Notes under the pieces: generated by a model | What the model saw: the letters and a program-made list of their open reading frames with translations, nothing else | The model's database searches: none | Told to the model about the DNA's origin: nothing | Position numbers and translations under genes: made by a program | Assembly (NCBI GenBank): GCA_001600495.1 | Contig: BCKE01000051.1 | Span: 249,516 to 309,380 of the forward strand | Direction: 5' to 3' | DNA: 59,865 nucleotides | Origin: Pilasporangium apinafurcum | Taxonomy: Eukaryota; Oomycota; Peronosporomycetes; Pythiales; Pythiaceae | Shown: positions 4,984 through 54,046 of the stretch, piece by piece | How positions within the stretch are numbered: position 1 is the first letter of the stretch | Layout: the number at the start of each line of letters is the position of its first letter

Positions 4984-5214
4984 GCTGTACAGGTGTAAAT
5001 AATGATATATATGCAACTTCTGTCCTGGAGATCAAGTAATCAAACGCAAAAATCAACAGCGAGACGAACCAGCAAAGAGATAATATAAAAGATTAAAAGC
5101 GAGAAAAAAGAAAAGAAAAAAAAGCAAAAAGAAATTGAAGGGAATAAGCACCAACCGGGCATCGTCGAGTCGTCTCACAATGCGAAGAGCAGGAAAGAAA
5201 TGCATGCTTTCCTT

Positions 5215-6184
5215 CTATTTCGAGGATCCAGGTGACTTCGAACGGACTTTACTCTTCTTCTTCTTGCTCTGGAACGCAGCAAAGCCCTTCGGATCACACT
5301 CTGGACAGAGCCACGTATCCGGATGCCGGCCATCGGAGAAGCCCACGCATTCCAAGTGGTACCACTGCGATGGATTGGGGCATTTTTTGCCATCACATGC
5401 GATCATGTTGCCATAACTAGGCATGTGGCAGACGCAGTAGAGCTCATTGTCTTCGCCATTGTCGTCTTTCTTCTTCGACGATTCCTTCTTGGGTTTGCTA
5501 TTTGACGACCCTGAAGAAGATTTACGATCCACACTGGACCCACGTGTATTACTTCCTCCGCCACTCGCAGAAGACGAACCGCCTCCATTCTGGTGCTGGC
5601 TGCTGCCATTGCTGCTCCCATGGCCCGTGGAATGCACCGACGCACTCGACACTGACGAGTCACGCTGGCGTTTGCGGCTGGCACTTTTCTTACGCTTCTT
5701 TTCCTGGTTCTTGCGTTCTTTCTCCGATAATGACCGCTTGTTTGGATTGCGTTCGCCATTGCGGATTCGCTGGATAAATGACACGATCGATTCGTCTTCT
5801 TCGACCTCAAGTGAACAATCGAAATGTCGCGCAACCATCGCCGCGAGATCTTCTTTACCGTAATCATCACGCACATTCAAGTGATAGAACTGTGCATAGC
5901 GCTTCAGCGCATTCATCTAGGAAACCAACACACCGGCAAGATTTAACAACCTCTGTGGAGCACATTCGTGCGTTTGCACACGTACCCCTAGACTCTTGAA
6001 ATCCACCATCAAGCGAGGGGGGTATACGATCTTCTTCAGGTGGTGATTCAGTTGGTCCCCACGCTTCATGTCATCAATGTCTGCTCAAATCAACCATCAC
6101 ACGTTTAGATAAGCGCGCACATTTTGAGTCTGCGCATAGCTCTACTCTCACACAAACCTCACCTTCGTCCATCATGTCGTACAT
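5215..6184 (-). CDS. SAP30-like Sin3-binding domain fused to ING-type PHD finger
   Basis: On the minus strand the proposed exons are 6184-6163, 6080-5986 and 5916-5215, giving about 272 residues. Splice sites are GTGAGG/CAG and GTACGT/TAG and phases agree. The exon 2/3 junction joins VDFKSLG to MNALKRYAQFYHLNVR. This rebuilds the core of the Sin3-binding domain of SAP30, a subunit of the Sin3/HDAC complex, and continues to about residue 90. A basic and Ser/Gly-rich linker follows. The C-terminus is a PHD finger of ING type (CVCHMPSYGNMIACD ... WYHLECVG ... WLCPEC), a histone H3K4-methyl reader. The first exon may lie further upstream: frame remains open to a possible acceptor near 6199. A chromatin-repression role is inferred. 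Confidence 0.7.
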
Positions 6185-6199
6185 GTCGTCGTGATCGTC

Positions 6200-7072
6200 C
6201 TGATATACAGTCACACACGTGCATGCAATGTTAGTCTCCCATCCCTCCCTCGAATGCTCAGTTTCGTGTTCGAATGAGTATGTGAACGCCAAACCATTTT
6301 TCAGCCCTTACGCTTGCTCTCGTCGACTTTTCCCCTCTCCACTTGAATGTCGCGCGTTTGCTTGTCGATCTAAAAATTTCTTCAGTGTGTCCGCTCCACT
6401 CCTCTCGTCCGCTCTTTGCTCCGCTCCGCTCGTACGCTCACTATTGGTGGACTGGCCGTACCCTCTGCTATTTACAGTTGATAGGCGATGACGCTTCTTT
6501 ATCAGCTATAGTGCCCTCTCCCACGCACATACAAAATGGACCTTTCGTGCCTCTAAACGAGTACATGTAGTGGTTGCAGTACGAGAGGGCGGCGTCTCTT
6601 ACGCTGATAGAGCAGCCACTCCCAATAGGGTGTACGACGAGCGGACGAGGTTAAATGGTTGGGTCCACGAAATAATCATCAGTATCTTGCTGGCATTCTG
6701 TAGGTGACAGTAAATCGGTGTGGCCCACACATTTATTCATTTGATTGGGATCCGTGCACCATGAAGCGTCGCGAATCTTGTTGGGTGATCCTTCTGATAC
6801 TTCTTCCGCATTTTTTTTACTTTCGCCTTCAATTGAAACTTACAGTGGCGTCAGCAAGACTCACCAGTAAGCATTATCCAACCTGAGCCAAGATATCACA
6901 CTTCGCGTAGATGCATCGTCCAGTATGTGCCAATGAACACAAGCGGAGAATGGCAATGCCAATTGTAATGACTTGTTTCAAATATTTGGGGTGTTATTGT
7001 TTTGTGTGTGTGTGTTTTTTTTGTTTTTTTTTCTGAATCCATGCTCTGGATCCTCGTGCATTGCGTAGGAAG
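6200..7072. other. Intergenic region, possible unplaced exons
   Basis: The left part should be the divergent promoter and any missing 5' exon of the SAP30-PHD gene. The right part may hold an upstream exon of the acidic protein gene at 7073, because that frame enters through a likely splice acceptor (GCGTAG just before 7070). A poly-T and TG-rich tract near 7000-7030 fits a pyrimidine-rich intron end. I could not join an upstream exon in phase. Confidence 0.4.
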
Positions 7073-7941
7073 ATGTGTCTGATTGCGAGAGCGAAGAAAA
7101 GCACCGACCAAACAGTGGTTTACGGGATACGTCCGCAAAGATGGATACTGTATTATTTTCTCGCAATCGGATCACACCACTTGCATCTGAAAGTACCGAT
7201 TACGTTGATTGGAAACCGGAACAGCGGCAACGTGCAACCTATCGAGTTCTCTTTGGACGTCCTTCGTTCGCTTCGTTGAATCGAACTAAATTACCAGAGT
7301 CTCTTCATTCTTCCTGTCTATCTAACCAAGCGATACATGGATGTTTTTCAGAGAATACCACAAGCGTTGGATCGAAAGGCAAGAAGCGCAAACCACGAAC
7401 GTCTAGCACAACGCGAGAACCAAACTTCAGGCCACCTTCGCCAAAGATAACCAGGAAAGATACTGCCTCACTCGAAGAGAAAGGAATTATAACAGCAGAC
7501 TTCGTCATGGATTTGGATGTCACAACTCATGAAGAGATTCCGGATAATAATGACGACTTCGTGCCACTTGACGTGATAGATGAGCTGCTACTAGCTGATG
7601 ACACGACAAATTCCGTGCCTTTGTCAGATACTTCCCCACCTCTCGCTGTAGATTCGTCCGTACAGCTTCAGCAGCTGATCGAGATGGACGATCCGATAGC
7701 ACCAACTAACGGTAGCAGAGATGACTCTCGCCTGGATAGCCATGACACTTTTCTTTATATGTGCGGTGATGATACACGCTCTGGAGCTGTTGCTGAAGAA
7801 ATGGATTCAATAAATTCTGAAATCTGTCTGCTAAAGGACAGTGCAGTCAGTGCAAACACACCTACACGCCTGGACAGTTTAGAAGAGTTTTCTGAGATTC
7901 ACGGTGACGATTTATATAACTGCTCGCCAAGCAGCACGTAA
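7070..7941 (+). CDS. Acidic protein of unknown function, 5' end unresolved
   Basis: The frame is open from the likely acceptor near 7069 to a TAA at 7941, about 290 residues. The only in-track start is a GTG at 7075, so I treat the entry as the last exon of a gene rather than a complete CDS. The first residues read EDVSDCESEEKHRP. A basic patch (GKKRKPRTS, a possible nuclear signal) lies about 100 residues in, and the second half is strongly acidic with many Asp, Glu, Ser and Thr. I recognise no domain. Composition is compatible with a nuclear regulatory protein, but that is weak inference. Confidence 0.5.
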
Positions 7942-25115: not shown

Positions 25116-26738
25116 CTTCCAGTAGGTGAGCAGCTACAATAAGGAAAAGATGCAATGGAAGCGGTAGAAGGCAAATTGCAAAGTGATTAAATTGGCGGTG
25201 ATTGAGATGTGGTCATCCATGTGGAGAGGTAAACACGCAGGACAAGAGAGAGACAGAGACATCGTGGAAGCATCTGTCGTATGCAATGAAAGCGCAAGGG
25301 AAGCGCGCTATTTTACAGGGTATAAGTAGAAGCGGCGGGCAGTTTTCTCCTAGCGGTCCAATGGTGGCTTTAGCGCTAGAACAGATGGGTCATTGGATGA
25401 AAAATTTGTTGTTTTCGCCAGATGGCATCCGTGTCATCTATTTGATATACTAGTAAAATGGCTTGTCACTCAAAAGTAGCAGTTCATGAACAGCAAAAAA
25501 GAAATGGTCTTTACTCTGGATGAATCCATTCAGAATATGCCGCCGGCCTGTGCTTGCATTAGTACCACAGAAGGACGCGTATGGGTGCAGTGTTATTCAG
25601 TCAAAGGATGCTCCGTATACTTTTAATTCCCACTGTCCCAGCTACTGCATAGACAAACCAGGAGACCATGACACAGGAGGTTGAACCATGCGTGAACGTA
25701 AAGGCAGTCGGGGTTTGGATGCAAGTCAGACAGTCTGGTAAACCCATCCAACATTGACTGGATACCCGTCCTTTGACATTTTTTACTGTTTGAGACTACA
25801 ATACGTGCTCGTTTGTAGTAGACGACTGAAATGGATGGTGACCAATACTGGATGAGAAACATGCGTCATTTCGAGTTTTGTCGCATGGATTTCTGTGGCT
25901 GCCATGGCGACGGCCACGCACGCCAAGCATCTGTACTTACATGACCGTCAGACATGGCAATGGGGATTGATGAGCTAGTCAGCTCCAACGCACTATCCAT
26001 TCTTTTCGGTAGAGCGCAAGTATTGTTTTCCACTTTTTGTATCATTCGCTGGAGTGACACGCACATTTTTGCTACAGCTAACGAATGAGTCTGCCTCGCC
26101 TTTACTTCTAAAACGTATAGCAGCGTATTTTTTTGTCGCATCCATTCCAGTCGAACGATGGCTGGTACGCTACATTGTGACTGTGTGGTCTCGTACGTTG
26201 TGGCAAGCATTGAGTGTGAGTACAACATGAGCAAGCTAGCGCTAGCGGTCTATAACACCATTCTGGATATAAACTTTGCTCTACATTCTCCTTTACAAAT
26301 CAAAGCCTGATATCATCCGTGGGAACAAATTAAATCGATCCTGACCAATCTACTTCCTTGTTATAAATCTTTTTGTTGATATCTGTTGCTACGCATAGAT
26401 CTTCACACCATATTGCATGAATTGGACGGTATTCATTTGGTCCATCATTCTTATTCTGCAGTTCATGGATCTTTTTGAACAGATTAGTAATGTTCGTGCA
26501 CAATCGTAAAGCTCTGCTCGAGGATATTACATGAAAGGACCAGTCTAACAACACAGGAATACCAATGAGAAGCGCCTGAACACCCAGAATATCGCTACCA
26601 ACATCCATCAGCGACTTTAAAATATCTTTTTTCGAAAACAGTCACAATCTAATATTTATCAATAGTTTCTCAATCTTGAGTACATAATTAAGGAGACAGC
26701 AACACACGTAAGACCACGACTGATATACCATCTCCCAC
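25116..26738. other. Intergenic region with decayed or unrecognised coding stretches
   Basis: The first 300 bases should be the promoter of the transglutaminase gene. At 25856-26230 the plus strand reads through as a hydrophobic protein interrupted by one TAG (25976-25978), including HYPFFSVERKYCFPLFVSF and ASIPVERWLVRYIVTVW. The antisense strand is also open (25866-26234). At 26330-26608 the minus strand encodes 92 residues with a hydrophobic start (LLIGIPVLLDWSFHVISSS). None matches a family I know. These may be pieces of a decayed membrane-protein gene or unplaced exons. Confidence 0.35.
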
Positions 26739-32716: not shown

Positions 32717-32770
32717 ATTGCTGACCAACAACACAACTCTCCTCGCCTACGGAAGTAAACAAGTGTGAAG

Positions 32771-34198
32771 ATGAACAAGTTTTTGGTGCGCGGTCTCGGC
32801 TTCTTCAATGATGCCTATGATTTGTTTGTCATGAACGTCGTCAACGTCGTGCTCACGGAGCAATACGGGTCCGATGTCTACACCTCGCACATGAAGTCAG
32901 CGGTCTCGGCGGCAGCTCTTATCGGTGCTGTCATTGGGCAGTTACTCTTTGGCTTTTTGGGTGACATCTTTGGTCGCCGCGTTAACATGATCGCTACTTG
33001 TGTGCTGCTCATCGTCGGTGGGTTGCTCTGCACATGCGCCTACGGTGGATCGCCCGAAGGAACGCTGTGGTTTTTGGTCATCGCACGCGGTATCTTGGGC
33101 GTTGGAATTGGTGGGGAATACCCTTTAGCAGCTTCCTCGACAGCGGAAGATGCGAGTGACGTTGCCGACCGCAACAAGCGTGTGGCGATGACGTTTTCGC
33201 TGCAGGGGGTGGGATCGTTGACGGCGTCAATACTCGGTAACTTGTTGATTGAAGCCCTCGCTGATGGTGACAAAGGCGAGAACAACTCGAGCCGACTGGA
33301 AACCGTCTGGCGATTGCTTTTTGGAATTGGTGTCATCCCAGCGTGCATCGTCTGCTACTACCGCATCACAGCCGAAGAAACGGAAGCGTATAAAGCGGCT
33401 GAAGAGCGACGTGCTGCTCATACTACTAGCAGTGCCCCCGCTGCGCGCACTCAACTACTGTTCATCCTAAAGAACTACGGCTGGGGATTGCTTGGTACGG
33501 CTGGTACCTGGTTCTTGTTTGATATTGTCTACTATGCGCAAAACTTGTTCTCGGCCAGTATTCTTTCGGTTGTGGGCGTGGAAAATGCGTCGCTACAACA
33601 AGTCACGACCGAGAACGCATTCGTGGCACTCATGGCACTTCCAGGTTACTATGTTGCTGTCTGCTTCATCAACAAGCTTGGTCGTAAGCTCATCCAATTG
33701 CAAGGTTTCGCGATCATGACGATCTTGTTCTTGGTTTTGGCCATCTGGTGGGATGATATTAAGGGACACTCAGTGTTGTTCATCATTCTCTTCGGTCTGT
33801 CGCTCTTCTTCTCCAACTTTGGTCCCAACACTTCCACCTTCGTCATGCCTACGGAAATGTTCCCTACGCCTATTCGTAGTACTTGCCACGGTTTCTCAGC
33901 TGCCTGTGGTAAGGCTGGTGCTGCTATTGGTTCATTTGGGTTCTCCATCTGGGTCGAAAACGAAAGTTTTGGTTACGATGGTGCATTCTACACTTTTGCC
34001 GCCATCTCGTTCATCTCGATCCCGTTGACCTATTTCTGCATGTTTGACAACGAGCAAGGTATTGACGAGATGGATGCAGAGTTCTACCGCAAGCTAAATG
34101 GCTCGGATGAATTTACACGCGAATCCTTTTCGTCAGTCATTAAACACGATGTGGAACGCGATGCCGGTTTGTACAAACAAGTCACAACGCCAAAGTAA
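32771..34198 (+). CDS. Phosphate transporter, MFS PHT1/Pho84-like, copy 2
   Basis: The protein has 475 residues. I start at the ATG at 32771 (MNKFLVRGLGFFNDAYD) because the paralogues begin with MNKFLIRG; the frame also has a GTG two codons upstream. It has the 12-segment layout, the GDIFGRRVN loop, the GVGIGGEYPLAASSTAEDAS signature and a variable central cytoplasmic loop (TSSAPAARTQ). From about 33805 to 34028 the bases are nearly identical to copies 3 and 4, although the rest has diverged, a sign of gene conversion. It converges with copy 3, with 456 bases between stops. Proton-coupled phosphate uptake is inferred from the family. Confidence 0.88.
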   Translation: MNKFLVRGLGFFNDAYDLFVMNVVNVVLTEQYGSDVYTSHMKSAVSAAALIGAVIGQLLFGFLGDIFGRRVNMIATCVLLIVGGLLCTCAYGGSPEGTLWFLVIARGILGVGIGGEYPLAASSTAEDASDVADRNKRVAMTFSLQGVGSLTASILGNLLIEALADGDKGENNSSRLETVWRLLFGIGVIPACIVCYYRITAEETEAYKAAEERRAAHTTSSAPAARTQLLFILKNYGWGLLGTAGTWFLFDIVYYAQNLFSASILSVVGVENASLQQVTTENAFVALMALPGYYVAVCFINKLGRKLIQLQGFAIMTILFLVLAIWWDDIKGHSVLFIILFGLSLFFSNFGPNTSTFVMPTEMFPTPIRSTCHGFSAACGKAGAAIGSFGFSIWVENESFGYDGAFYTFAAISFISIPLTYFCMFDNEQGIDEMDAEFYRKLNGSDEFTRESFSSVIKHDVERDAGLYKQVTTPK

Positions 34199-36162: not shown

Positions 36163-38760
36163 AAAATATAAAGAGGAAAAAATGTCGAGGACGTCGTTGG
36201 ACGAAAAGAGCAATGGATCAGACTCGTGGCTCTGTGAAGAGCAGCATCACCAAATGGAAGGGATGTGGTGATTAATGGTAGTCCTTTTTTTTTTGCATTG
36301 CTGACCAGTCAGTACTGACCGCATTCAGCCTAAACTAAGAGCCTGATCGTGATTTGAAGACCAGCACATTTTACCCAAAATAAACGTCTGAGAATCTGTG
36401 ACGTGTGCATGCTTGAAGAGCTCTTGGTGTTCTTCATCATCGTTCTTTGCGAACTTTTTCCACTGCAGTTCTCTGCGATTTATGTTAGCATGTTTCGATA
36501 TACCAAGTTACCATTTCTCATCCGCCATATATGTAGTATTGTATGAGTGTAACTATCATGCTGAGCAGGGCCACATACTATTTAGAATATCATAGTTGTG
36601 GGTGGCCGGTCTCACTGCTTCAGTGGCTATTGAGTTTCTAAGCGATTCTAGCTTCCCGTCTCACTGAGCAGGTTCAATTGTATGTATGTACTTAGATCTC
36701 CGTTGGTTCTTTGAGGCGATTTCAAAGGGAGATGGTTTTGAATCTCCAAGGCGAAGAAGTGTTGGGTTGCGACGATGATACCATGTCAAACCAAAAGCTT
36801 AACAGAAAAAAAGAAGCCTCGGTCCTCAGATTATGCGCTGGGGTTCATAGATTAGTATAGGGGCATCGTACGTGTCTGAGAGCGCAGTGCGTTGCGAAAA
36901 GAGTATTACAATCGCAGCATACTAGCTGTAAAATGCCCCTCCCGATTAAATGGTTTATACAACGTACATTAACAAATTAATCACTGCTGCAGCAACGCAT
37001 ACAAATTAAAAAAAAAGAGGAGGAAAATACACCACCGATTTTAATCAATCTACGAAAAGCAGAGCAAGTTGAACACACATACGCATTGCGACTTGAGTTC
37101 CTAATGCGTCAAATCCTTCAGCAAAGAACGCATATATCGCTCCCAAATTAAATAATTGCCCAAAATAAAGAGAACCCAATCGTAAAAAGATTCAAAATGG
37201 CCTCTTTTTGTACTAGTTCCATCTCTTTAGGCGAATCTTAATCAGTGGAAATGAATCTCATGAGATTCAAACATCGTAGCAAAGAAATCTTTCCCCCAAA
37301 GGTGGCAGCACCTTGAAGCACGTAAGTTGGATTCAAGGTGGAGGGGTCAGAAGGAAATGAAAAAGAGCACGAGGAAGATGTCCAGTCTCCCTATTTACCG
37401 TCTCTCCCCCCGTTGGATAGATGTAGATAAATAGAGGGATAGACTGATGGGAGAAGAGCAAGTTTTTGTACCACCAATCAATGTGTCGCTGTGCGTGTTA
37501 TGCATGCTTTCCTCTGCGTCCATACGCACACATACACATACATACACACACACACATGAAGGAGTCAAAAGCCATGTAACAACTCTTCGGTGATGCATTC
37601 ATTAGATTCATGCACTTTCATTTTGATCAGTCATAAGCGGGGATTATAGTGGATAATACTGTCGTAACCCTGATGCATCAGAAAAGAATATATTAGTCTG
37701 TTAGTAGGTAAAACCAGTCGCAATGGCTTACGTTTCTCACGCAACCTTTTCCCAGAAACGAAGTGACTAAAGTAGCGCTTTTCTAATCAATCGCTGCACA
37801 TATCCGTATGTATATCCATTGATTGATGTGGTAGTCTACAGAGCTTGCCTCAGTTTCTGAAGCAGCTCCAAATGTCCATTTCTCCCTAATAGTCTCGTAT
37901 AGCTTATCAACCAGCAGACACATCTAACTCTTGCTGTTCTGGACGCCATAATAAGAGTTGGGAAATATCTAAACTGTCTAAATCATCATTGCTTCATGCA
38001 TCATCCTTACCATCGAACCAATTGCGTCTTCAATCGCATTTTGCTACTCCTTCGAATCAGCCTTTCACATTATCATACTCACTGAATATGAACTTCTGAG
38101 TAACTTAGAGGCAAGCAATCATCCTCTTAAACTGACAAGACTATCGTCGACGTTACGAGTGGGTAAATCTGATACCCTAAGGCGGTATTAGATCGTTTCA
38201 CAATTATTTACTCAGAGGCTGTCTCAATAAACGGTCACACAAGATGTCTATCCAACGAGTAATGTCTGCAGCACTGGTTAAGTCCGCAGGCAGCACCACA
38301 CAACCAACGTAGAAATGAAGACAACGTGGCGATGGAACTAAATGCACTGGTTGGTAGAGTTTGATTTCCTCTTCCAAAAATGCATGCTCTCCCAGAAAAG
38401 CAGAAAAGGACTCCCTGTCACTTGTTGTGGTCGGTAAATTAGGCGACATCACATAAGCTGGACATGTTCATCTATGAAACAATGGATACCCTTCCTCCCT
38501 TTGGAGTAAATATACTTGGGTTCACTATGCCCCATATGACTGGGGGCCGATCTTGAATCTCGAACAAGATTCCGCCGTGACGGATCTGTTTTGTGCTCTT
38601 CGTGTCTTGGTTGAGACAGGAGCCCCACCCCCATCAATGCGTACGGTACCTTGGAGAGTTGCCTGAGGTTGCACACGAGCTGACCCGTCTTGAGAAGGGC
38701 AGTCTCCCACGCACCGTAGCTCTTCAAATAAAATGGACCTGGTCTCACCAACAGAACACT
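36163..38760. other. Spacer of the transporter inverted repeat
   Basis: This stretch of about 2.6 kb separates the divergent copies 3 and 4. It has a 16-base perfect palindrome GAATCTCATGAGATTC (37253-37268), a short CA-rich tract at about 37528-37557 and A-rich tracts near 37005. Two overlapping minus-strand frames at 38204-38763 (82 and 104 codons) have no family that I recognise. They overlap by a few bases at ATGTGATG and could be one broken gene. No other coding region is supported. Confidence 0.45.
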
Positions 38761-38763
38761 CAC
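38204..38763 (-). other. Two overlapping unknown frames, possibly one broken gene
   Basis: The upstream frame (38763-38449) contains KYIYSKGRKGIHCFIDEHVQLM and ends where the second frame (38452-38204) begins, which contains CLHFYVGCVVLPADLTSAADITRWIDIL. The transition needs a frame change. I know no homologue. The 5' end of the first frame sits only 76 bases from the start of transporter copy 4 and overlaps its promoter, which argues against a functional gene. Confidence 0.25.
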
Positions 38764-38767
38764 TTCA

Positions 38768-38784
38768 GCTCAGTTCTCAACTTT
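38768..38784 (+). promoter_or_regulatory. Initiator-like sequence of transporter copy 4
   Basis: GCTCAGTTCTCAACTTTC resembles the oomycete initiator and the site before copy 2. It lies about 56-72 bases before the ATG at 38840. Confidence 0.45.
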
Positions 38785-38839
38785 CTCACTGCCTCAACAG
38801 TCTTCATCCAGAAAAAGCGCGACCACATCCGCCAGAACG

Positions 38840-40267
38840 ATGAACAAGTTTTTGATCCGAGGTCTCGGCTTCTTTAATGATGCCTACGATTTGTTCGTTA
38901 TGAACGTCGTCAACGTCGTGCTCACAGAGCAATACACCAAGGCCGTCTATACGTCGTATATGAAGTCAGCAGTCTCTGCTGCTGCCATCATTGGTGCTGT
39001 CGTCGGTCAGCTCCTCTTCGGCTTCTTGGGTGATGTCTTTGGTCGTAAGGTCAATATGATTATTACGTGCTGTCTGCTCATCTTTGGTGGTATCCTTTGT
39101 ACGGTTGCGTACGCTGGTGATGCTTCGGACACGTTGTGGTTCTTGGTCATCGCTCGTGGTATTTTGGGTGTCGGTATTGGTGGTGAATATCCACTTGCTG
39201 CCTCATCCACTGCTGAAGACTCGTCCTCCCCTGCTGAACGTAACAAGCGTGTGGCTCTCACGTTCTCGCTTCAGGGTGTTGGTTCAGTAACTGCTGCTTT
39301 GCTCGGTAACCTGTTAGTGCAGGCACTTGCTGATGGTCCAAAGGGTGAGAACGACAAGGAACGTCTTGAAATCGTTTGGCGTCTGCTTTTCGGTCTTGGT
39401 ATTGTCCCTGCCTGCATTATCTGCTACTACCGCTTCACGGCTGAAGAAACGGAAGCGTACAAGGCCATCCAAACTCGTGGTCAGACTGTCGCACATGCCA
39501 CCTCGGAAAAGAAGGCTCGATTCTCTTTCATCTTGAAGAACTACGGCTGGGGATTGCTTGGTACGGCTGGTACCTGGTTCTTGTTTGATATTGTCTTCTA
39601 CGCTCAAAACTTGTTCTCGGCCAGTATCCTGACTGTTGTCGGTGTGAAAAATGCGTCGCTGCAACAAACTACGACTCAAAACGCATTCGTGGCACTCATG
39701 GCGCTTCCAGGTTACTATGTTGCGATCATGTTCATCAACAAGCTTGGTCGTAAGTACATTCAACTGCAAGGTTTCGCGATCATGACGATCTTGTTCTTGG
39801 TTTTGGCCATCTGGTGGGATGATATTCAGAAGAAATCGGTGCTTTTCATCATCTTGTACGGTTTGGCACTCTTCTTCTCCAACTTTGGTCCCAACACTTC
39901 CACCTTCGTCATGCCTACGGAAATGTTCCCTACGCCTATTCGTAGTACTTGCCACGGTTTCTCAGCTGCCTGTGGTAAGGCTGGTGCTGCTATTGGTTCA
40001 TTTGGGTTCTCCATCTGGGTCGAAAACGAAAGTTTTGGTTACGATGGTGCATTCTACACTTTTGCCGCCATCTCGTTCATCTCGATCCCGTTGACCTATT
40101 TCTGCATGTTCAACAACGATCAACATATGGATGAAATGGACGCCGAATTTTATGCCAAGCTCAATGGTGCTGATGAATTTACACGTGAGTCGTTCTCGTC
40201 GGTTGCCAAGCCTAATGACTTGGAAAAGAACACAACAGCGTTCAACCCAATGGTGACTCCTCAATAA
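38840..40267 (+). CDS. Phosphate transporter, MFS PHT1/Pho84-like, copy 4 (right arm of inverted repeat)
   Basis: The protein has 475 residues and is near-identical to copy 3, in the opposite orientation, 2.75 kb away. All family motifs listed for copy 3 are present. The match stops close to the start codon on one side and about 35 codons before the stop on the other, so promoters and tails are private to each gene while the transport core is shared. This may keep one protein under two different regulatory regions (inference). Confidence 0.9.
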   Translation: MNKFLIRGLGFFNDAYDLFVMNVVNVVLTEQYTKAVYTSYMKSAVSAAAIIGAVVGQLLFGFLGDVFGRKVNMIITCCLLIFGGILCTVAYAGDASDTLWFLVIARGILGVGIGGEYPLAASSTAEDSSSPAERNKRVALTFSLQGVGSVTAALLGNLLVQALADGPKGENDKERLEIVWRLLFGLGIVPACIICYYRFTAEETEAYKAIQTRGQTVAHATSEKKARFSFILKNYGWGLLGTAGTWFLFDIVFYAQNLFSASILTVVGVKNASLQQTTTQNAFVALMALPGYYVAIMFINKLGRKYIQLQGFAIMTILFLVLAIWWDDIQKKSVLFIILYGLALFFSNFGPNTSTFVMPTEMFPTPIRSTCHGFSAACGKAGAAIGSFGFSIWVENESFGYDGAFYTFAAISFISIPLTYFCMFNNDQHMDEMDAEFYAKLNGADEFTRESFSSVAKPNDLEKNTTAFNPMVTPQ

Positions 40268-42523: not shown

Positions 42524-45500
42524 ATGGATTCAACGAGCGACGGCGCGCGGGTGGATGTGTCACCGCCATTAATCTCCGTCGATCCAGAAGATGCAAATCG
42601 ACGAGAGCACGCGATTGCAGTTCAAAACACAAGCGATTTTACAGTGACCGACACTCCTGTGTCCGCATCTGCTAGTGAGTGCGGGAGCGTGAAACGACAG
42701 CGCAACTCAGACACTGATAGCGATGAGAAGAAAACTATAGATATAGAGGTACAAGAACGAGGATCGGAAGAAGCAGAGGACCAACAGGATGCAGTGGAGC
42801 TCCAATCGCGAAATAACCAAGGTTCTGGCGCATATGATGTACCTACATCAAACGTGGATGCGGACGATGCGGATATGTTGACGGAAAATACCGAAGAGTA
42901 CGAGTCAAAAGATGAGGAAAATAGTGCGACAGACGAAATTGATTCGGCCAATGACACACCGAATGACACACCGTCCAAACGCCGCAATGGTAGCATTGAG
43001 GACGACGCGGAACGAAAGGAAGGTTTGGATGACAATACACCTCTAGACGAGGGAGCTGTGACTGCGATCGAGCGCGATAACGACAATGGAGAAAAGCCAG
43101 TAACGACAGCATCAAATACAGAAGCAGTGGGATCAGAACACGTCGCTGACACTGTCGACAACTCCATCGCGTCTCTCAGGCGAATGATACAGGAGGTACG
43201 TTGCTCATACATTGATGTGTATTGTAAAGCTACATCTCCGGTGGATTTAACGTGGAATTTCATTGTAGCGTGGGTTGGACACGACATCATTGGATCAATG
43301 GAGCGTCCGCTCAGACGGAAAGCTTGTGGATGCATCTGGAAAGAAATATCGCGACGTTCAGGATGCGTTTCGAGCGTATACTTTTGCCCTAACGGGTATG
43401 ATTCCACGAGAGGACATATACTTTTTGGCAATCCTTCGCAGAACTCTAGCGGAGCAGGAACTACCCCTTCATGACGGTCCTATAAGTGTGTTGTCGTTGG
43501 GTAAGGTGGTTCCAGAGCCCCTTTTCTACAGTCCCAAGAAACTTTTTCCGGTACTGATGTGATGAAGAAGGCATAATATCAGAACTGCAAAACTGATGTA
43601 TTCTTGTGTCCATAGATTGGGTACGAAACGCTTGTAAACGTGCAGGTTACCAAACCAACCACGCTGTCGTTCCGTTTGCGCTGTAGTACGTACATCCATA
43701 ACGCATATTTGTCTAACTGTGTAAGGTTGATTTGATTTGTTTATCTGAATTGTTTTATTTGTAGAAATTGTCCATGGAAACAAGAAGAAGTCTCCTATAT
43801 TTGTGGTGGAAATGGAGAAAACGACAGGTTTAATGGGAATTTCTACTCTGTGATGATGTCTTCATATTAATAAATCTGCTCATGTGTCTATAGACATCGT
43901 CTTTCGATCTTATGTTGCAAGCAAAGCATGGAAAAAAGCGCTGGCTCATTTTGAGAATTTGACAACGGAAGAACTTACGGCTTTAGTAGGGGACTATGAA
44001 ATGTACCCATCGACAGAAGCAAACGATTCTCGGGAATATCTATCGATTGCAAGCTCAGAGGATGGTTTTGGGCTGCTTCGTCGAAATGTAACACGAGTAT
44101 TGGAAGGGCTACCTCAAGTGTTAAAGTGCAAAGATTATCAATTTTGGGAAGAACGGCACCCTGTTACGGCTGATGTCCATACTAAACTTCGATCTCGATT
44201 AAAAGCACAAGTAAAGACGTCGCTTAAAGCTCAAGATAGTTTCTCGAAAGAGGATATCAAACAGATCATTTCACAAGAGGTGGCGTTGCACATCCATTCA
44301 CAGGATCCGGATGAATTAGCTCGAATCCAGCTGCAAAAGGATAAAGAGAAACGGGAAGCTGAAAAAAGAAGCGTTCGTGAAGCAGCTCGTAAACTTTTAG
44401 AAATTGAGATGAAGGCACAAGAAGATGCAAAAGAAGCGCAGCGGAGGGAGAAGGAAGAGAAAAAAAATGCAATTTTGGAAGCGAAGATGGAGGCGTTAAG
44501 ACAAAAAGAAGCGCGAAAAGAAGCATCGCGGTTAGCAAAGGAAGAAGAACGGCGTATGCGAGAAGAGGAGAAGGAAATGAAGCGTGCATTAAAAGAGGAG
44601 GAAAAGCGAAAAAAGCTCGAAGAGAAGGAAAACCTAATGAAGCGCCGAATAGAAGAGCTAAGGCAACGACGAAAGATGAGGGAGGAGCAACGATCTATTT
44701 TAGAAAATGGCGTGGTTACAACGTCAAGTCATGCTCAACCTGTTGCCGTGAGTGGCAACGATAGCGTCGAAACTAGTGACTGTAATGAGCCGGCAGCTCA
44801 TAGGGGGATCGAATCTTCAGCCACAACACCTTCTGGAAGTGCGAAGACTTCAGGTTCCTCGATTCGTCAACAGCGCCTTGCTTTGCTCAAGTTTGTTGAG
44901 GAAGAAAAGGATCGAAGGCGACGAATACGCATCTGGGAAAAGAAAAATCATGTGGAAAAGTGTATTTGGACCTCTGTAAAGTCAAGATATCAGCGTGATG
45001 TCAAGTGTACCGACAAGCTCTCTTGTTCTGACGATGAGACAACAAATTCTGGCGGTTCTACTGATCAATCTGTCGAGAATTTAAATAAAAAATCTAGCTC
45101 ATTTCCGCAGAACATCATTTGTTCTTCAAAGGAATTAGATTTGGTACCAGAGGAACTTCAAGCGGATTTGTTGTTCATTTGGGACTTCATTTCGACGTTT
45201 GCTGACTGTTTGAGATTGACGGTTGTTCCTTCACTTGGCATCTTTGCTAAAATGATGGCTCTCAGTGACGGCTCAAGTCCAGTGGGTGATGGTGCATTGG
45301 AAGATGGTTCGCTTGGACAATTATTCGCTGGTATTCATGCTGAGCTCATAAAAGTACTTGTCGCTGAGTATTTCCCAGTGTTACAAATGGGCACGCGGTT
45401 GGATGAATTTTATCGAACACGGCCATTGAATATATTTAGTTGGCCGGAACTTGCTCGGCAGGTTTGCTTATTGTTCATTGAAGTTAAGCATCCTAGTCCA

Positions 45501-48500
45501 GATGAGCAGATACTTAAATCACTGAAGGGGTCAAAATCGTATCGAGATGATTCAGTCGTAATACCAGTGAGACAGAAGCTACAGAGAAGAGGTTTGCATC
45601 TACTAACTGGTGTTCAGTATGAAGAAAGATCGTCAGATTTAAACTCAAGCCTCCCGTTAGAGAAAAACACTGATATGACGACTGATGTAGTCAATGCGAA
45701 CTCATCGTCTGCTATGAGCGCGTACTATGGAGTCGTAATTCCTGATGGAATATCAAGCAGAATAGAAGTGACCGAAAGAGATGGGCATCTTGTCATTAAA
45801 AATGTGGCAGATGTCTCCAATACGACTGATCCCAATACCGCTGCAGATGAATCAAAGCCATCTGACGCAACCAACGATGATGGGAACGACAACGTTGGAA
45901 GTATGAAGGTTGGAGACTACCTCGTGAGTATCAATGGTCAGAATGTGAAGACAATGACAATGAGTGAATTTAATACTCTGCTGGAAACGCTGCCTCCTCC
46001 TCATGGGGTGCTGTTGTCTTCTTCTATTCCACAGACAAAAGTTTCTCTCAAGCATATACCAACGACAACGAGCTCATCATTATTGAAGCGGTGTGCGCAT
46101 GTGCTGAAAATATTACGTGCTAAAGAGATTTCGTCTCCGTTTAATCAACCGGTAGATGCTGAGCTCTATCCTGATTATTACTCAAGCGGCATTATCGCGG
46201 AGCCGATGGATCTGGGCACTATTGCTGAAAAACTTGAGGATGAGGACTACGAAAATGACGATGTAGAATCATTTGTGGAAGACGTGGCGCTCGTGTGGAA
46301 GAATTGTTACACATACAACTCTGTAAAGGCAGAAATTTCGAATCTCGCACGAAAACTCTCTGCTATCTTCGACCGGCTAATGAATGAATGGGTGTATACG
46401 ACTGTGACTCGGCCATTAATAGCAAGCGAAGAAGACTTTTGTCGTAATTGTCAGACGAATCATGTGAAAGACCGTTTGCTGTTATGTGACAGATGCGATG
46501 CCCCTTATCACACGTTTTGCCTCGCAAGTCCGTTGTCAAAGGTTCCAACTGAGGAATGGTTTTGTCCAGCATGCGTTAAAGATCCCGAATTTTCTCCAGA
46601 TCTGTTTCGAAGAAAGCCATCAGACGCTGTTGGTGTGGGAAAAGAAAATGGAAGTCTACAAGACCAAGATTTCACCGAGTTCGAAAAACGGGTCCAAACA
46701 GTAATTGAATTACTATCTAAGGAAAATTACGCGGAACTGGTGATTGATGAAAGATTAAATATTCTGAAGGTGCTGTGTGAGCTCGTTCAGGGAACAGCAG
46801 TAGTTCAATCGATATACCACTCCCTAGAAGAAAAAGCCAATGAAGCACGAAGGGATTTTGGTGACGCACTAGCTGATTTGAGGCGTGAGTGGGATCATTT
46901 CTCTCCTCCACGAAGCAATCACGGCATCGAGCGTACTAACAAGTTCTTCATTGACGGAGTGGAACATGAACTAACTGATGAACTATTGCAATATTTGGGT
47001 GACAAGGCGACAGCTGAATTGGAGAATCGGCCGATTCCAACCTTACCAACGAGTGCACTGCATCGACTCCATCACCAATACCATGATGTTGAAACTATAT
47101 TTGGTTCAGAAGTACCTGAATCTTTGACAGAACCGAATGACAGCACCTCAGATGACTCCGATTCGGATGAAGACCATTTGTTGGAAAAGTTTGGCGATGA
47201 TTTCTTATGTACATTCATACAAAAGGTAGAACCAACTATCCCTCGTCCTGATATTGGCAACGATGTGCAGTCGAATTCATCGTGTATGTTTTGCGGTTTG
47301 GAGGATGGAATCCTTAATGGGTCCTTGCATGTTTGCAAAGTTTCCCCACTGACGCACCAGGTAACAGAACTTCGCCAGTATGAAATTCCAGAATTTCTTG
47401 CGGGTGAGAGCCACGCAACATTTAGAGTGGAGAGTATCGTCGACAACAATTTATTGAATATTAATATTGCACCCGTACCTGAAGGTGCCCAGCTTCGAAA
47501 GCATCAAAATCGTGCAGGAATGGATATATCTCATGTTCCTTTCCCCAATCAGAATGGTGGAATGGATCAACAAATTCGTATGGATATAGATGCGACAAAG
47601 CAAGAAGAGATGACAGAAGATGTTATTTATGCAGTTAATGATCGCGTTGTTCACGGAATGGATCTCAACAAGGTTATGGAGGTGATACAGAACGCGGATA
47701 AACCTGCACTGATCTATTCGACGACTCTCCCAGGTGAGGCATTGAAGGCATCTGTGTCGATCGTCAAGTATTATTCAATTCCATTGGCGCTGGATTTTGA
47801 TATCTTCGAATCATATATATTTGTTCAATCATATCAGTCTTCTCCTGAAGTTCCAGTTGGATTTGGAGAACTTTGCGGACAAATATTTCCTGGCGATATC
47901 TTGCTGATGGTAAACGAGATCTCAACAACAGGCATGGATTTGCCTGAACTACTAGAGTTATTACGCGCTGACAGCTCAATCGTCAAGTATCTCGTGTTCG
48001 CTCGTCCACCTTGTGGTGATATGAAAGCTTTAGTTAAGCAATGGCAGCGCATTTCGAATGATAACACTATCCAACGCTCTATACAAGATAAAATCAGGGC
48101 CGAAATGATAGAAAATACCCAGGGCAACGGTGCAAATGATCGATATTATTACGAAGTTACTTTTCATGACGGACCGCTTGGGTTAGCACTATCACTTGAA
48201 GATAAGGGTGTGATTGTGAAATCTCTGAATGATCACTCGAATGGAATGCTGAGCCAAGCATCATTAAGTCGCCAAATTCGTCCTGGTGATTTGGTGGAAA
48301 CGGTGAATGGTGAAGTCTATGGACCCTTACGCGATCTATCGCAATTTACTTCAGCACTGCTTCGTTTACCTCGGCCGTTAGTGATCGGGTTTTCCAGAGA
48401 TATCAAACTAAGTAATCTCAATCAGGTCGACGCCATGAATGAAGTGAGTAAAAAATCCAGTACATCTTATTTAGAATTGATTGGTGATTCAAGCCGACTC

Positions 48501-51500
48501 CGTAGAAGTCTTGATCTTCCTCCAAAATCAGAGGTGAAGACTTTCCGTGTATTGGCATTCCCATTTCCTTTCGTCGTTGCAGAATTTGTGAATTCACTTC
48601 GTGTGATTGCTACAAATGGAACCGTTCATTGTGAATCTGTGGAACTGAAGCATAATAGCGGCCAACAAGATGAATGTGCGACTTCAGTGATAAATGTTGG
48701 GGATCGCATTGTTGGGCTAAATGGGAAGCCATTGTCTGGGTTGAGCTGGCTTTCCGTTCAGACTCTCTGTAGAGATTTATTAGCGGGAACTCCGCTGTAT
48801 CTGCACTTAGTTCCACATATCCGTCAGGCGACGTTATTGATGGCGCATACGCATTGTGCTCAAGCTGCAAACATGGCATGGTCAGAGTGTGAATATTTGG
48901 CTTCTAAGCTCCAGAAAGCACGCCGTCTGGAAACTTTCCTTAATTGGATGGTGGTACCTCGAACGCTACCGCTAGGAAGATGTCGAAGTGGCTTCACATA
49001 TTATCGGTTTTTTGGTGATCGGCAACGTGTGTACTTGGTATCTTCAGAGAAAAAATGGTTCTCCATTCAGCAAAAAGTTCATTTTACGAACCTACTATCA
49101 TACTTAGAAGCAAACTCCAGGGATTTGGTAATTGCAACACGTATACGTGCGTGCTTTCATCTTATTCTCCACGGTGACACTAGTATAAAACTAAGTGTCC
49201 CATCCCACAAGGTTACCAGTGCGAGTGGCTCAGCATCTGCAAAGTTGTGCTGTGAGTTTTCTGATGTTTCATTTTTACAAAGTGGTCCTTTTGCTGTCCG
49301 ACGAGAGATCATTTTGTCCGTTTCTGAAAGCGAAATGGAAAGTCATGAGGCATCACTTACCTACTGTGGCCGAAAGTTCTATGTCGGTACTTTCAGTACT
49401 CGAGATCAAGCTGAAAAAGCGTTACAAATTGCCGAAGCTGGTATGTATTCCACCGGTTTACATATCGCTCCGGCATCTGATGTGTCTTCACTAGTTGCCG
49501 CTCGGTTTCCGTCGCTTGATGTACCGGTTCTAAAGGCGGAGACTGTGGTCAGGCGCAACTTGGCTCGAAAGTACGAATATGGGAGTGTTCTGGATACCTC
49601 AGGTAGGCCAAGAGGTATTCCACTATCTCAGTCCGTCTACCATACACTTCGTCGTGGCTTGAAATTCGGCTCAAGCTCAATGCCACAGAATTCTATGTTG
49701 GAACCCTCAAGAGCATATTATCACGAAGTCAACAACAACAAGGGACGTATGAGCAATGTTTCGTCTCAGCTATCGTCAAATGCGTATGAACAAATGAAAC
49801 GAAAGAGGAGTCAGTACGACAACATTGAAATGTCGATGTATCAAAATTTTGACCAGCTAAAGCGATCAAAACAGCATGCGGGGAATGTGTCACAACAACT
49901 CTTGCAAAGTTCGGCTGCACAGCCATCAACAAGAGTCTCACCTGGACACGCAACAGAAGGTAATGGATCTGTTTTGTTTAAGCGTTCTCTTCAATCGCTC
50001 GGAGATCAAGGAAGAGCAATGCTATCTGCGTGGAACCAGTTTGCTACTTCTCCAAATGTTGCAGCTAGCAATGGACTGGCGTTTGCTTGTCTGTCAAGCT
50101 TTGAGGAAGTGAAAAAAGCACTCTCAAGGATCATTGTTGATCGTAATGGGCCGCTTCCTGATCCAAAAACATTTGTTTGCTTGCATCATACGTATGTGAT
50201 TGGTTTGATTTGCGCAATGACCACTCAAGCTTTAACTAGAAGTCGTAAAACAACAGGTGATTCGGCGTTTGCGAAACTGATTGCTGATGCATTCGCTACG
50301 GCTATTCTCAGTTGTATGGATCCCTCAACAATGCTACGCACTAGAGCATTACACGGCTTTGCTATCGCTGCCAAGCATTGTGAACATTCAGTGCGATCGA
50401 GTGATTTGTCAGATGAGCTTCATCATGTGGCAAATTTCATCCTTCAATTTTTGCGAACGACCCAATATCTTGCCGAAGGAAACTTTGAAGATATGACGCG
50501 TTGCCGCTCCATCCTCCCACCTTTAAATCGAGGAATGGAGACTTTACCGGCTTCATTTTTTCAACAAATTAAGCTTCTGGACAGCATCCGTGAGTCTTAT
50601 TCTCAAAGAACTGCTCGACTATCTTCAGTAGCAAGTCGCAAACTCCCAGGTCCTACTGCAAAGTCTTCGCCTCATGGAATGGCTCATCTTTCTCCATCAG
50701 TATCAGTAGGAGCGGGGAGTTCAGGTCCTAATGTCGCCAACGGCACTTTTATCAACGTCGATTTCGGTAAGGGACCATTGGGAATTGTGATCAACTATTC
50801 CAGTCGCGGCACGATAGTTGTCACTGAATTTTCAAACGACAGCGGTATGATGGGCCAGGCACAAGCAAGTGGAAAAGTGCTAATCGGCGATGAGGTATAT
50901 GCAGTCAATGGTGATCGTCTTGAAGTCATTGGAATGGAAGGGTTTAAGATGGCGGTTGCCACCGCCGCCCGACCACTACGCGTTACATTTCGTCGATTGT
51001 CGTCAATTGCTAGAGCACCGTATGTAGCCAGTGCACGGTCTAACACTAGCACAACTGGATTACCTCTGCGGCAACAAACTCAAAATACTGTACCTGTTTT
51101 GAAATACCCACAAGGTATTCCGACGGCTCCGCAAAATCAATATTCTGCATCGTCGGCTCGTGACGCAATGTATTCTCCTGCCCCATTACCGGGAGTAATG
51201 AATGGGTACTTCAATGGACAGCAAGGAACTGCAATGGCAATGCCCACCGAAAATATGAATAGGGCCTATCAACAACAGAATGTGAACGCATATCCTGATA
51301 ATGAAATTGATATCAATCCAATTCCATTTCAAGCTTCTGCACCTCAAAGCTCTGGTGCTGGAAATGATGGAAAGATACCATCGTATGGAATGGCTGCACC
51401 ATCCACTCTCGGTCCGTACGCGGATAACATGTCAGTACCTTATCCTGCGGCACCAAATGACAACAATTATGGAGTTTTACCAAATATATTCGACAGTAAT

Positions 51501-54046
51501 GCAGCTCTTCCACCTCCAACCGAATGGCAAGCTCCAGCGAGTGCAGCAATGAATTACGGTGCTGGTAGACCAATCGCATCAGTGTCAACATACTCATCGA
51601 ACCCGACTACAGGCGAATTGAATGGTCCTACCAGCATGCCACAGCAAATGAATCCTTCTCAGTACCCTACGACATCGATGTCATTTGCGACGGCGTCATC
51701 TCTAGTACCGAATGCTTCTCAAGACTCGACAGGTTCATACATGGGCAATTCGTCGTCTGACTATGTCCAATTCGTCGCTCCAAATGATCAAACAAATGTG
51801 CAACCCAATTCAAATCAACTAACTTTCTATGATGCAAATGATACCACATTTCGGGGTGTGTCTGGATTTGAAGTGGATACGAGTACGCTGACTGGTGCCG
51901 CGTCGGGAGCCTCACAAACTGCACAAGACGTGGAGACGGAACCAGAATCGCCGTCAGTATCGCAACTGACAACTCCTGCTCAGTCGGATACAGAAGGAGA
52001 AGGAGGAAGCAAGGGTACGTCGCTTATGCGTGAAGCGCAACTGATGAGGCTAAGGGCTGTTTCAAATGCGTTGGAAACCAGTATAGCAACAACCCATTCA
52101 GCACAAACGCCTATAATATCGATGAATACGACTAATGGTATCCATACTTCAGCAAACCCCAATGTTGGAAGTGCTCCATATTCGTCATCAAGCATCACAG
52201 AATCGGTTTCGATACCAGTGAACGAACAAGAAGTCACCCTTGGTTCGAGGGACAATCATGATGTGGATACGGCAGAAGGAACTGGTGCCAGACGATCTTC
52301 ACGTGTTTCCAGGAAAATCACGACCAACATTGCGGATTTGTACGATCCTGAACTTGCAAAAAGCAGTCAGCTCAAATCAGGAACTGGTCGAATAAATAAC
52401 AAAATTGTGGAACCTACGAGTGGTGAAGTCGGGGAACTGGCCACGGAACTGCTGGAGCCATTCCAAGTAACAATTCGACCACTCAAGTCTGATATCCCAT
52501 ATGCGTTATCACTTCTGAGAGCACAGCTACTGACAGTGGAAGCCGCTATGCCACGTGATGCCTTTCGCACGGGCCGGTGGATCCGCTCAATCCGTGCAGC
52601 GTGGGCAGAAATGGTATATTCTTGTGATTCTGCAGCAATGTTGTTGGAGGCGATTTTGTTTTTGGAGTCGAATATCGAAGCGGAGTGGTTGGACCCGTGC
52701 TGGAAAGCGTCTCCGTTACAAACTGCCAGGAACGCACTAGCCAGTGCTACGATAGCGTCCGCCGCAATGCGATTATATGCACTGGATGATGCTGTCGCAT
52801 ACGTGCGAGTCAAACGGTCTGGGAAGCGTAAACAAAAAGCACCATCAATTGTAAGCACCAGCCGCCCGTCATCACCAGCAAATGGTGCTATATCCAGTTC
52901 GCCAATCACACATCCATCAGAATTACCATTTATGAATATGCTATCAAGTGGAACTATTGCACTAGCCAATAAGATTATCAATCGGATTGTTGCTGGAGTT
53001 CGTGACAAGACGATGAGTGCTTATATGCAACGAAAGGTAAGTGATTACAGTTACTTCTACACTCCAATGTTGGTTGAGTTATGTAATATATTGTTGCTGA
53101 TATAGGCAAAGAGTGAGCTTTCTGCAATCACGTCGCTTTCGGATGAGCAAATCGATCAGTGGGTCAAAGTTTGTGTATCACAAGCACAGCAACAGCCATT
53201 ACGTGGCCTCGCAGTCATGACAAGTCAGTCAACTCAGGGAGCTGTCGCATCGCGCCAAGCGACACCGAAGCGCAAAAATCCTGGAGCGCAAGTTAGTCCT
53301 TCGGGCCAACCGTCGACTCGAAAACGAAAGAATGCCCGGTCAGGCGGTAGCTCCAGTGGTCAGCACCAGCGGGTGGAGTTTCGATGTTTCCAAATGAAAA
53401 CTACCACGTATCAATTTCACACAGGCGTACTGGATGCAACGTTATCAAGTCGATTGGAGCACATCATGACTACACTGCTGAGAAATGAGCTGGCATTGCC
53501 ATTTGCGCAACCGGTGAACCCAAACGACGTACCTGGGTATACAGATATCATCAAAACTTCAATGGATCTAGGAACCATCAAGACGCGGTTGACCAGAGGC
53601 TATTATGAGCAACGGTATCAACTCTTTATCTCGGACGTGAATCTCGTCTGGACGAACTGTTTTACATTCAATCGCCTCGACTCGGAGATCTCCAAGTGTG
53701 CGAATCGTCTGAAATGTGAGTTTATGTGTCATGATGTGTCATGGACATGATGAAGGCAAACTGTACTCATTTCATATTCGTTCTGTGTGTGTATCCTGAT
53801 GCAGCAATCTTTAATCGTCTTTTTGAGCAATGGATATCAGACATCCCTCCAGGCACACCCGTCGCCCAATTACCCACTGAAGAGCAATGTCGACAGTGCC
53901 AGCAAGACAACGCCACAGACAGCATGCTTCTCTGTGATAGTTGTGATGCAGCGTATCATATTTTCTGTCTGAATCCGCCGTTGTCAGTAATTCCACCTGG
54001 TAACTGGTACTGTCCGCGGTGTCCACTTCAGCAGGTGACCATGTAA
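42524..54046 (+). CDS. Giant chromatin-reader scaffold: FYRN-FYRC, DDT, PDZ array, two bromodomain-PHD pairs (7 exons)
   Basis: The proposed exons are 42524-43195, 43269-43550, 43616-43685, 43765-43827, 43894-53036, 53106-53715 and 53805-54046, giving about 3,693 residues with phase kept at every junction. After an acidic N-terminus, exons 2-4 rebuild an FYRN (LFPIGYETL, RLRCKIVHG, PIFVVEME). Exon 5 opens with an FYRC (GFGLLRRNVTRVLEGLP, CKDYQFWEE; about 363-450). A charged coiled coil follows (about 510-640). A DDT domain (LLFIWDFISTFADCL) lies at about 780-855, a PDZ at about 969-1075, a bromodomain at 1090-1195 and a PHD at 1211-1260. Four PDZ-like units lie in 47.4-48.8 kb and a clear one (GKGPLGIVINYSSRG) at about 2649-2732. 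A second bromodomain spans exons 6/7 and a second PHD ends the protein. DDT-bromo-PHD resembles BAZ/BPTF remodeller subunits. Confidence 0.85.

What the first reader, a model, noticed from the sequence alone, without database searches (positions are those of the whole stretch)
42524..54046. A 3,693-residue protein that joins histone-reader modules to a multi-PDZ array
Splicing by eye gives one continuous gene with FYRN-FYRC, DDT, two bromodomain-PHD pairs and about six PDZ-like units. DDT plus PHD plus bromodomain is the layout of ISWI/NURF accessory subunits, and FYR domains are typical of MLL-type and related chromatin proteins. I know of no characterised chromatin protein that also carries a PDZ array. 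PDZ domains bind C-terminal peptides, so the protein could tether chromatin complexes to partners with PDZ ligands. This would be a new kind of reader scaffold if the gene model holds.
Basis: partly seen in the sequence, partly recalled or inferred. Interest (0 to 1): 0.8.

Follow-up and report, generated by a model that had tools for sequence, protein, structure and literature searches.

The report
Chromatin-remodeler subunit carrying PDZ array
One very large gene in an oomycete-like genome appears to encode a chromatin-reading partner of nucleosome-sliding motors with peptide-binding PDZ modules built into it, a combination better known from cell-junction scaffolds than from the nucleus.

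Summary
Splicing six GT-AG introns gives 3,693 residues, and the surprising linkage needs no splicing: one 3,082-codon frame (43857-53105) holds the FYRC tail, DDT, bromodomain 1, PHD 1 and all PDZ units. A PDZ profile from 25 other loci of this genome finds six units: four firm (20.9-36.8 bits), two weak (9.2, 9.9); 200 shuffles reach 0.6 at most. Unit 4 folds confidently as PDZ. I add WHIM1 and a weak WSD motif: this is probably a DDT-WHIM protein, the class that binds ISWI motors, interrupted by PDZ and reader domains. DDT and WSD stay below Pfam cut-offs. Two SLIDE-bearing ISWI-type motors exist here. Only PDZ4 and PDZ6 keep a canonical carboxylate loop. PDZ in oomycete chromatin proteins is not wholly new: two chromodomain-SNF2 proteins with a bracketed PDZ are tabulated for Phytophthora infestans (PMC4030286), and one such gene lies here. 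A DDT-WHIM/FYR protein with a PDZ array was not seen in my searches. New variant of a known kind; function inferred, not shown.

The parts
42524..54046 (+). whole gene model, 7 exons, 3,693 aa
   Evidence: open after splicing six GT-AG introns of 65-89 nt
43894..53036 (+). exon 5 (within the open frame 43857-53105): FYRC tail through PDZ6
43461..43636 (+). FYRN (spans intron 43551-43615)
   Evidence: 25.6 bits, cut-off 24, on the spliced protein; 17.7 bits on the exon alone
43794..44144 (+). FYRC (spans intron 43828-43893)
   Evidence: 38.6 bits spliced; 19.9 bits unspliced; cut-off 21
44259..44702 (+). charged, probably helical linker
   Evidence: sequence read; no Pfam family above cut-off
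45162..45365 (+). DDT domain (sub-threshold)
   Evidence: E 0.0012, 19.3 bits against cut-off 22; not among the 3 candidates of the genome search
45723..46040 (+). PDZ1 (no canonical carboxylate loop)
   Evidence: 22.3 bits; PDZ_6 1.6e-5, 25.0 bits against cut-off 27
46092..46352 (+). bromodomain 1 (acetyl-lysine Asn present, CYTYN)
   Evidence: 4.2e-18; PDB bromodomains, BRD4 chains first
46440..46574 (+). PHD finger 1
   Evidence: 1.7e-9
46707..46787 (+). WHIM1 motif
   Evidence: 3.6e-5, 23.7 bits against cut-off 19.1; 24.1 bits; 18.4 bits on the whole frame
47601..47741 (+). PDZ2 (degenerate, weak)
   Evidence: 9.2 bits; second half pLDDT 74-90 by blocks of ten, first half low; listed top 50 are PDZ-containing chains by title but E 0.07 or worse
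47784..48023 (+). PDZ3 (loop reads PLAL)
   Evidence: 20.9 bits; PDZ_6 2.2e-6, 27.7 bits against cut-off 27; low confidence
48135..48407 (+). PDZ4 (canonical loop PLGL)
   Evidence: 29.4 bits; pLDDT 81-97 by blocks of ten; no PDZ match in Pfam
48609..48818 (+). PDZ5 (degenerate, weak)
   Evidence: 9.9 bits; PDZ 0.0051; low pLDDT
48960..49112 (+). WSD (WHIM2) motif, GxD reads GRC
   Evidence: E 0.0021, 18.6 bits against cut-off 25.4; 0.045 on a shorter cut; 0.093 on the whole frame
50736..51011 (+). PDZ6 (canonical loop PLGI)
   Evidence: 36.8 bits; PDZ 0.0048, below cut-off; PDB X11/APBA1 PDZ 5.5e-4
53454..53705 (+). bromodomain 2 (CFTFN)
   Evidence: 3.7e-20
53888..54022 (+). PHD finger 2
   Evidence: 2.7e-13
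54032..54046 (+). C-terminal tail QVTM and stop (fits the class II PDZ-ligand pattern Phi-x-Phi)
   Evidence: sequence; the ligand class is recalled

Best explanation
It is a giant accessory subunit of an ISWI-type nucleosome-remodelling complex. Shown: one open frame links DDT-like, BRD, PHD, WHIM1, WSD-like and PDZ modules; two ISWI-type motors with SLIDE domains are in the genome. Inferred: the DDT-WHIM parts clasp the SLIDE domain of an ISWI motor, the two BRD-PHD pairs read acetylated histones and probably unmodified H3 tails, the FYR domain adds a further chromatin or partner contact, and the PDZ units, chiefly PDZ4 and PDZ6, bind short peptides, most likely C-termini of other nuclear proteins, and so recruit or cross-link the remodeller. 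The PDZ set would do by another fold what the WAC domain does in yeast Itc1, which binds short epitopes in transcription factors. PDZ1, 2, 3 and 5 are more likely structural or binders of another kind.
For: Single frame. WHIM1 with DDT and WSD in the family's order. Two SLIDE-domain motors. A conventional set of WHIM1-WSD-PHD in one frame with a DDT just upstream on C5 shows that the family is present. PDZ profile and fold evidence. Bromodomain Asn kept in both units (CYTYN, CFTFN; sequence). K-K/R-x-K/R clusters at aa 57, 249, 600, 2331 and 2352 fit nuclear import. No WAC match in the scans that together cover the protein. Itc1/ACF1: DDT and WHIM1-2 contact SLIDE in predicted complexes (PMC12093815 passages); the Itc1 WAC domain binds recruitment epitopes (PMC7968928 abstract and passages).
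Against: DDT and WSD are below Pfam's curated cut-offs, WHIM1 is just below on the whole frame, and the Asp of the GxD signature in WSD is Cys here. The whole-genome DDT search did not list the window's DDT among its 3 candidates. The DDT-WHIM1 and WHIM1-WSD distances (about 450 and 725 aa) are large, so one module must tolerate big insertions. Four of six PDZ units lack a canonical carboxylate loop. No ortholog from another species could be examined (searches found none, in collections of prokaryote genomes and viral contigs), so conservation of the architecture is unknown. No expression or localisation data.
Confidence: 0.5

Rival explanations
1. It is a chromatin reader scaffold that does not bind ISWI: the DDT-WHIM remnants are degenerate, and BRD-PHD pairs plus FYR plus PDZ act in a histone-modifying or transcription complex.
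For: DDT and WSD sub-threshold; GxD Asp not kept; FYRN and FYRC, typical of MLL/SET1-type proteins (recalled), above cut-off.
Against: Three DDT-WHIM family motifs in the right order in one protein are unlikely by chance (inference, not computed); no SET or HAT family appeared in the scans.
Confidence: 0.25
2. The PDZ units have lost ligand binding and serve only as structural spacers inside the DDT-WHIM module.
For: Only PDZ4 (PLGL) and PDZ6 (PLGI) keep a canonical loop; PDZ2 and PDZ5 score 9-10 bits and PDZ2 gives no significant fold match.
Against: PDZ4 and PDZ6 score highest and match nearly the whole profile, and PDZ4 folds confidently; PDZ6 lies outside the DDT-WHIM span, so it is no spacer there.
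Confidence: 0.2
3. Two genes: a PDZ-DDT-BRD-PHD gene ending at the stop 53103-53105, and a separate BRD-PHD gene downstream.
For: The frame meets a stop at 53103-53105 if intron 5 is retained; intron 5 has no independent support.
Against: Donor GTAAGT and acceptor TATAG, a length like the other five introns, frame open across the join; a separate downstream gene would start close behind the stop. Even if true, DDT, BRD, PHD and PDZ remain in one frame.
Confidence: 0.1

Closest known systems
BAZ1A/ACF1 and yeast Itc1 (ISWI accessory subunits; PMC12093815 passages)
   Same: DDT, WHIM1, WHIM2-like motifs in order; PHD and bromodomain present (ACF1)
   Different: no WAC match here; PDZ and BRD-PHD inserted within the DDT-WHIM span; FYR at the N-terminus; BRD before PHD; two BRD-PHD pairs
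P. infestans PITG_03401, chromodomain-containing protein D (PMC4030286 Table 2, passages) and its look-alike here, C2:257561-263407
   Same: bromodomain-PHD pair and a PDZ in one chromatin protein; here in one open frame
   Different: has its own SNF2 motor and chromodomain; a single PDZ; no DDT, WHIM or FYR match
P. infestans PITG_10083, chromodomain-containing protein B (same table)
   Same: PDZ (in brackets: missing or non-significant in some species) in a remodeller with PHD
   Different: chromodomain-SNF2 motor; single PDZ; no PDZ found at the one candidate locus that I looked at here (7 kb, L081)
BPTF/NURF301 (recalled)
   Same: DDT with PHD and bromodomain
   Different: no PDZ, no FYR known to me
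Multi-PDZ scaffolds GRIP1, PSD-95, syntenin
   Same: PDZ units in tandem; best fold matches of units 3-5
   Different: cytoplasmic junction/synapse scaffolds without chromatin modules (recalled)

Membership tests
DDT-WHIM ISWI accessory subunits | DDT domain | tested here: inconclusive
   E 0.0012, 19.3 bits against cut-off 22; 17.8, 13.6; not listed
DDT-WHIM ISWI accessory subunits | WHIM1 motif | tested here: met
   23.7 bits against cut-off 19.1; 24.1 bits, one of 5 places in the genome (4 over cut-off); but 18.4 on the whole frame
DDT-WHIM ISWI accessory subunits | WSD (WHIM2) with GxD signature | tested here: inconclusive
   E 0.0021, below cut-off; signature reads GRC (Asp not kept); Ioc3 has GIQ (PMC11789628 passages)
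DDT-WHIM ISWI accessory subunits | physical binding to an ISWI motor | not testable with these tools
   two SLIDE motors exist; binding not tested
ACF1/Itc1 subfamily | N-terminal WAC domain | tested here: not met
   no WAC match; aa 1-224 scanned within window:42458-43471 and exon 5 onward, aa 225-420
PDZ domain family | PDZ profile and fold | tested here: met
   whole frame PDZ_6 2.1e-18; four of six units firm, two weak; PDZ4 model and PDB matches; PDZ2 fold not confirmed
PDZ domain family | carboxylate-binding loop Phi-Gly-Phi (recalled motif) | tested here: inconclusive
   present in PDZ4 and PDZ6 only, 2 of 6 (sequences)
FYR (FYRN-FYRC) proteins | FYRN and FYRC adjacent | tested here: met
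   25.6 and 38.6 bits, cut-offs 24 and 21, on the spliced protein
MLL/SET1 methyltransferases | SET domain | tested here: not met
   no SET match
Bromodomain readers | fold family plus acetyl-lysine Asn (recalled) | tested here: met
   CYTYN and CFTFN

The most novel reading that the evidence does not exclude
Oomycete remodellers are wired to each other by PDZ-peptide contacts: a PDZ array took the place of the WAC domain as the recruitment module of an ISWI complex, and the tails of the two PDZ-bearing chromatin proteins (this one ends in VTM, the chromodomain-SNF2 one in VRL) are themselves PDZ ligands, so that ISWI- and CHD-type complexes could self-associate or join each other on acetylated chromatin.
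Probability: 0.12. Interest if true: 0.85.

Novelty: new variant of a known kind. Interest (0 to 1): 0.55.

Why it matters
PDZ modules are the textbook organisers of cell junctions and synapses. A set of them built into the presumed ISWI-binding part of a chromatin reader suggests a peptide-addressed way to recruit nucleosome remodelling that I do not know from animals, fungi or plants, and it offers two concrete domains (PDZ4, PDZ6) whose ligands can be screened. With the chromodomain-SNF2 gene that also holds a PDZ, it hints at a lineage-wide habit rather than one odd gene.

Tried and rejected
An AP2-like reading of aa 2160-2220 was tested by two Pfam scans of that stretch: no AP2 match, dropped. 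A WHIM3-like reading of aa 3210-3350 gave no family. Orthologs were sought in prokaryote genome contigs and viral contigs: none, as expected for a eukaryote gene. A joint alignment of PDZ1-BRD1-PHD1 with PDZ and BRD rows was misaligned (PDZ rows fell on the bromodomain) and not used for folding. A sequence search of PDZ4 against the PDB gave three non-PDZ weak matches only.

Survey of PDZ and chromatin domains. 42 PDZ places (23, 18 more, one, merged by hand) were set against bromodomain, PHD, SNF2 and WHIM1 places: 3 places in two genes (this one and C2) share a frame with chromatin domains; 4 more (C17, C88 twice, C37) have such a domain within 15 kb but not in the same frame, and whether introns join them was not tested; 35 have none. 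A PDZ scan of 1,521 frames in 43 held loci (30 bromodomain loci with 1.5 kb either side, 13 others, several of them fetched because they hold PDZ) hit five loci: L049 (this gene), L071 (chromodomain-SNF2), L072, L076 and L077. No third PDZ-chromatin gene was shown. Counts are lower bounds, since the genome search ignores introns and scores only the best candidates.

For the PDZ profile I used 25 of 38 PDZ loci; 13 were left out: five duplicates, two that are this gene, and six short or weak ones dropped without a test. The shuffles keep composition only.
Full report
Observation. I placed the junctions by GT-AG signals, phase and domain fit, knowing that total, and got 11,082 nt, 3,693 residues and one terminal stop. 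Introns are 65-89 nt with G+C 0.30-0.40. The surprising part does not depend on splicing: an uninterrupted frame of 3,082 codons, 43857-53105, contains the FYRC tail, DDT, bromodomain 1, PHD 1 and every PDZ unit. Some junctions have independent support: FYRC rises from 19.9 bits on the unspliced frame to 38.6 on the spliced protein, FYRN from 17.7 on its exon to 25.6, and the two BRD-PHD units align at 41% identity over 169 aa with no gap where intron 6 was removed. Introns 1 and 5 rest on their signals and phase alone.

Modules. In order: FYRN, FYRC, charged linker, DDT, PDZ1, BRD1, PHD1, WHIM1, PDZ2-PDZ5, WSD, a long low-complexity-looking stretch with PDZ6, then BRD2 and PHD2. FYRN, FYRC, both bromodomains and both PHDs pass Pfam's cut-offs. 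WHIM1 passes on its segment (23.7 bits) and in the genome search (24.1) but falls just short on the whole frame (18.4 of 19.1). DDT (E 0.0012) and WSD (E 0.0021) do not pass; I accept them as likely because they are the partners of WHIM1 in the same family and stand in the family's order, but as formal tests they are inconclusive. The GxD signature of WSD reads GRC. If they are real, PDZ and reader domains sit between DDT and WHIM1 and between WHIM1 and WSD, that is, within the span that in Itc1 and ACF1 is predicted to contact the SLIDE domain of the motor (PMC12093815, passages).

PDZ identity. Pfam matches the frame strongly as a whole (PDZ_6 2.1e-18), but unit by unit only PDZ3 passes a cut-off and unit 4 has no PDZ match. 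A profile from 25 PDZ loci elsewhere in this genome, with this gene left out, finds exactly six units at 22.3, 9.2, 20.9, 29.4, 9.9 and 36.8 bits; the best score in 200 shuffles of the protein was 0.6. An AlphaFold2 model of units 3-5, with alignment depth only at unit 4, gives unit 4 at pLDDT 81-97 by blocks of ten and units 3 and 5 at low confidence (mean of the whole model 60.3). The 50 listed Foldseek matches are PDZ-containing chains by their titles; 27 of 758 matches have E 0.001 or better, led by GRIP1 PDZ1-2 at 6.8e-6. Unit 2 was folded alone on an alignment of PDZ rows: good second half, poor first half, and none of 675 matches at E 0.001 or better, the best at 0.07. So four units are firm by profile and two are weak or degenerate. 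PDZ1 and PDZ6 were not folded. In a comparison with the other PDZ units at hand, the best match of PDZ6 outside the gene is the PDZ of a kinase-PDZ-laminin G frame at C23; the chromodomain-SNF2 PDZ is not among its eight best others.

Binding capacity. By the recalled Phi-Gly-Phi criterion only PDZ4 (PLGL) and PDZ6 (PLGI) keep a canonical carboxylate loop; PDZ3 reads PLAL and the other three are unlike it (sequences). Both bromodomains keep the acetyl-lysine asparagine. The PHD fingers lack the tryptophan of the H3K4me3-type aromatic cage and look more like the unmodified-H3K4 type; this is a recalled motif, untested. Of four C-termini looked at, two fit a class II PDZ ligand (this protein VTM, the chromodomain-SNF2 protein VRL) and two do not clearly (ISWI-type C31 RTK, C7 TPA); downstream introns were not excluded for the latter three. 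That is suggestive at most.

Context. Two SLIDE-domain motors and a WHIM1-WSD-PHD frame with a DDT just upstream on C5 show that ISWI-type biology is present. Among 42 PDZ places, 3 places in 2 genes share a frame with chromatin domains: this gene and the C2 gene.

Novelty. PDZ in oomycete chromatin proteins is in print as table entries: PMC4030286 Table 2, seen in passages, lists a bracketed PDZ in two chromodomain-SNF2 proteins, brackets meaning missing or non-significant matches in some species. I saw no paper on a DDT-WHIM or FYR protein with PDZ, nor on a PDZ array in a chromatin protein, in the searches. I read their listings only, some of them cut (20 of 30, 20 of 22, 12 of 79, 12 of 47), and the library holds open-licence papers only. 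Hence: new variant of a known kind.

Mechanism. The likeliest reading is an ISWI accessory subunit with peptide-addressed recruitment. The parallel is yeast Itc1, whose WAC domain binds short epitopes of sequence-specific factors and so aims Isw2 (PMC7968928, abstract and passages). This protein shows no WAC match and instead carries PDZ units. Motor binding, histone binding and peptide binding are all inferred here; none is shown.

Noticed in passing
L071 (G000:C2:256000-265999), frame 1538-7432 on the - strand: A second PDZ-bearing chromatin gene: bromodomain, PHD, chromo, PDZ, SNF2, helicase C and several PHDs in one 1,965-aa frame, tail VRL.
   Followed up: partly
L072 (G000:C23:343500-348000), 1758-4499 on the - strand: A protein kinase joined to PDZ and a laminin G-like domain in one frame; of the units compared, its PDZ is the best match to PDZ6 outside this gene.
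   Followed up: partly
window 22551-25133 on the - strand: Transglutaminase-elicitor family gene (PF16683, 6e-173) with a PT repeat and PAN domain, an oomycete-type marker (recalled).
   Followed up: no
G000:C82:100590-104208 on the - strand: Six bromodomain matches within about 3.6 kb on one strand, four of them in a 958-aa frame and two in a 564-aa frame.
   Followed up: no
G000:C20:208053-208703 on the - strand: A sub-threshold DDT (19.3 bits) followed by a bromodomain in a 420-aa frame, reminiscent of CECR2 (recalled).
   Followed up: no
window 46092-46574 and 53454-54022: Both pairs have the bromodomain before the PHD, the reverse of the usual PHD-bromodomain order (recalled); the C2 gene shows the same order, while C14:478446-478895 has PHD first.
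   Followed up: partly
window 32759-34195 and 38732-40264: Two sugar-transporter frames of similar length about 4.5 kb apart.
   Followed up: no
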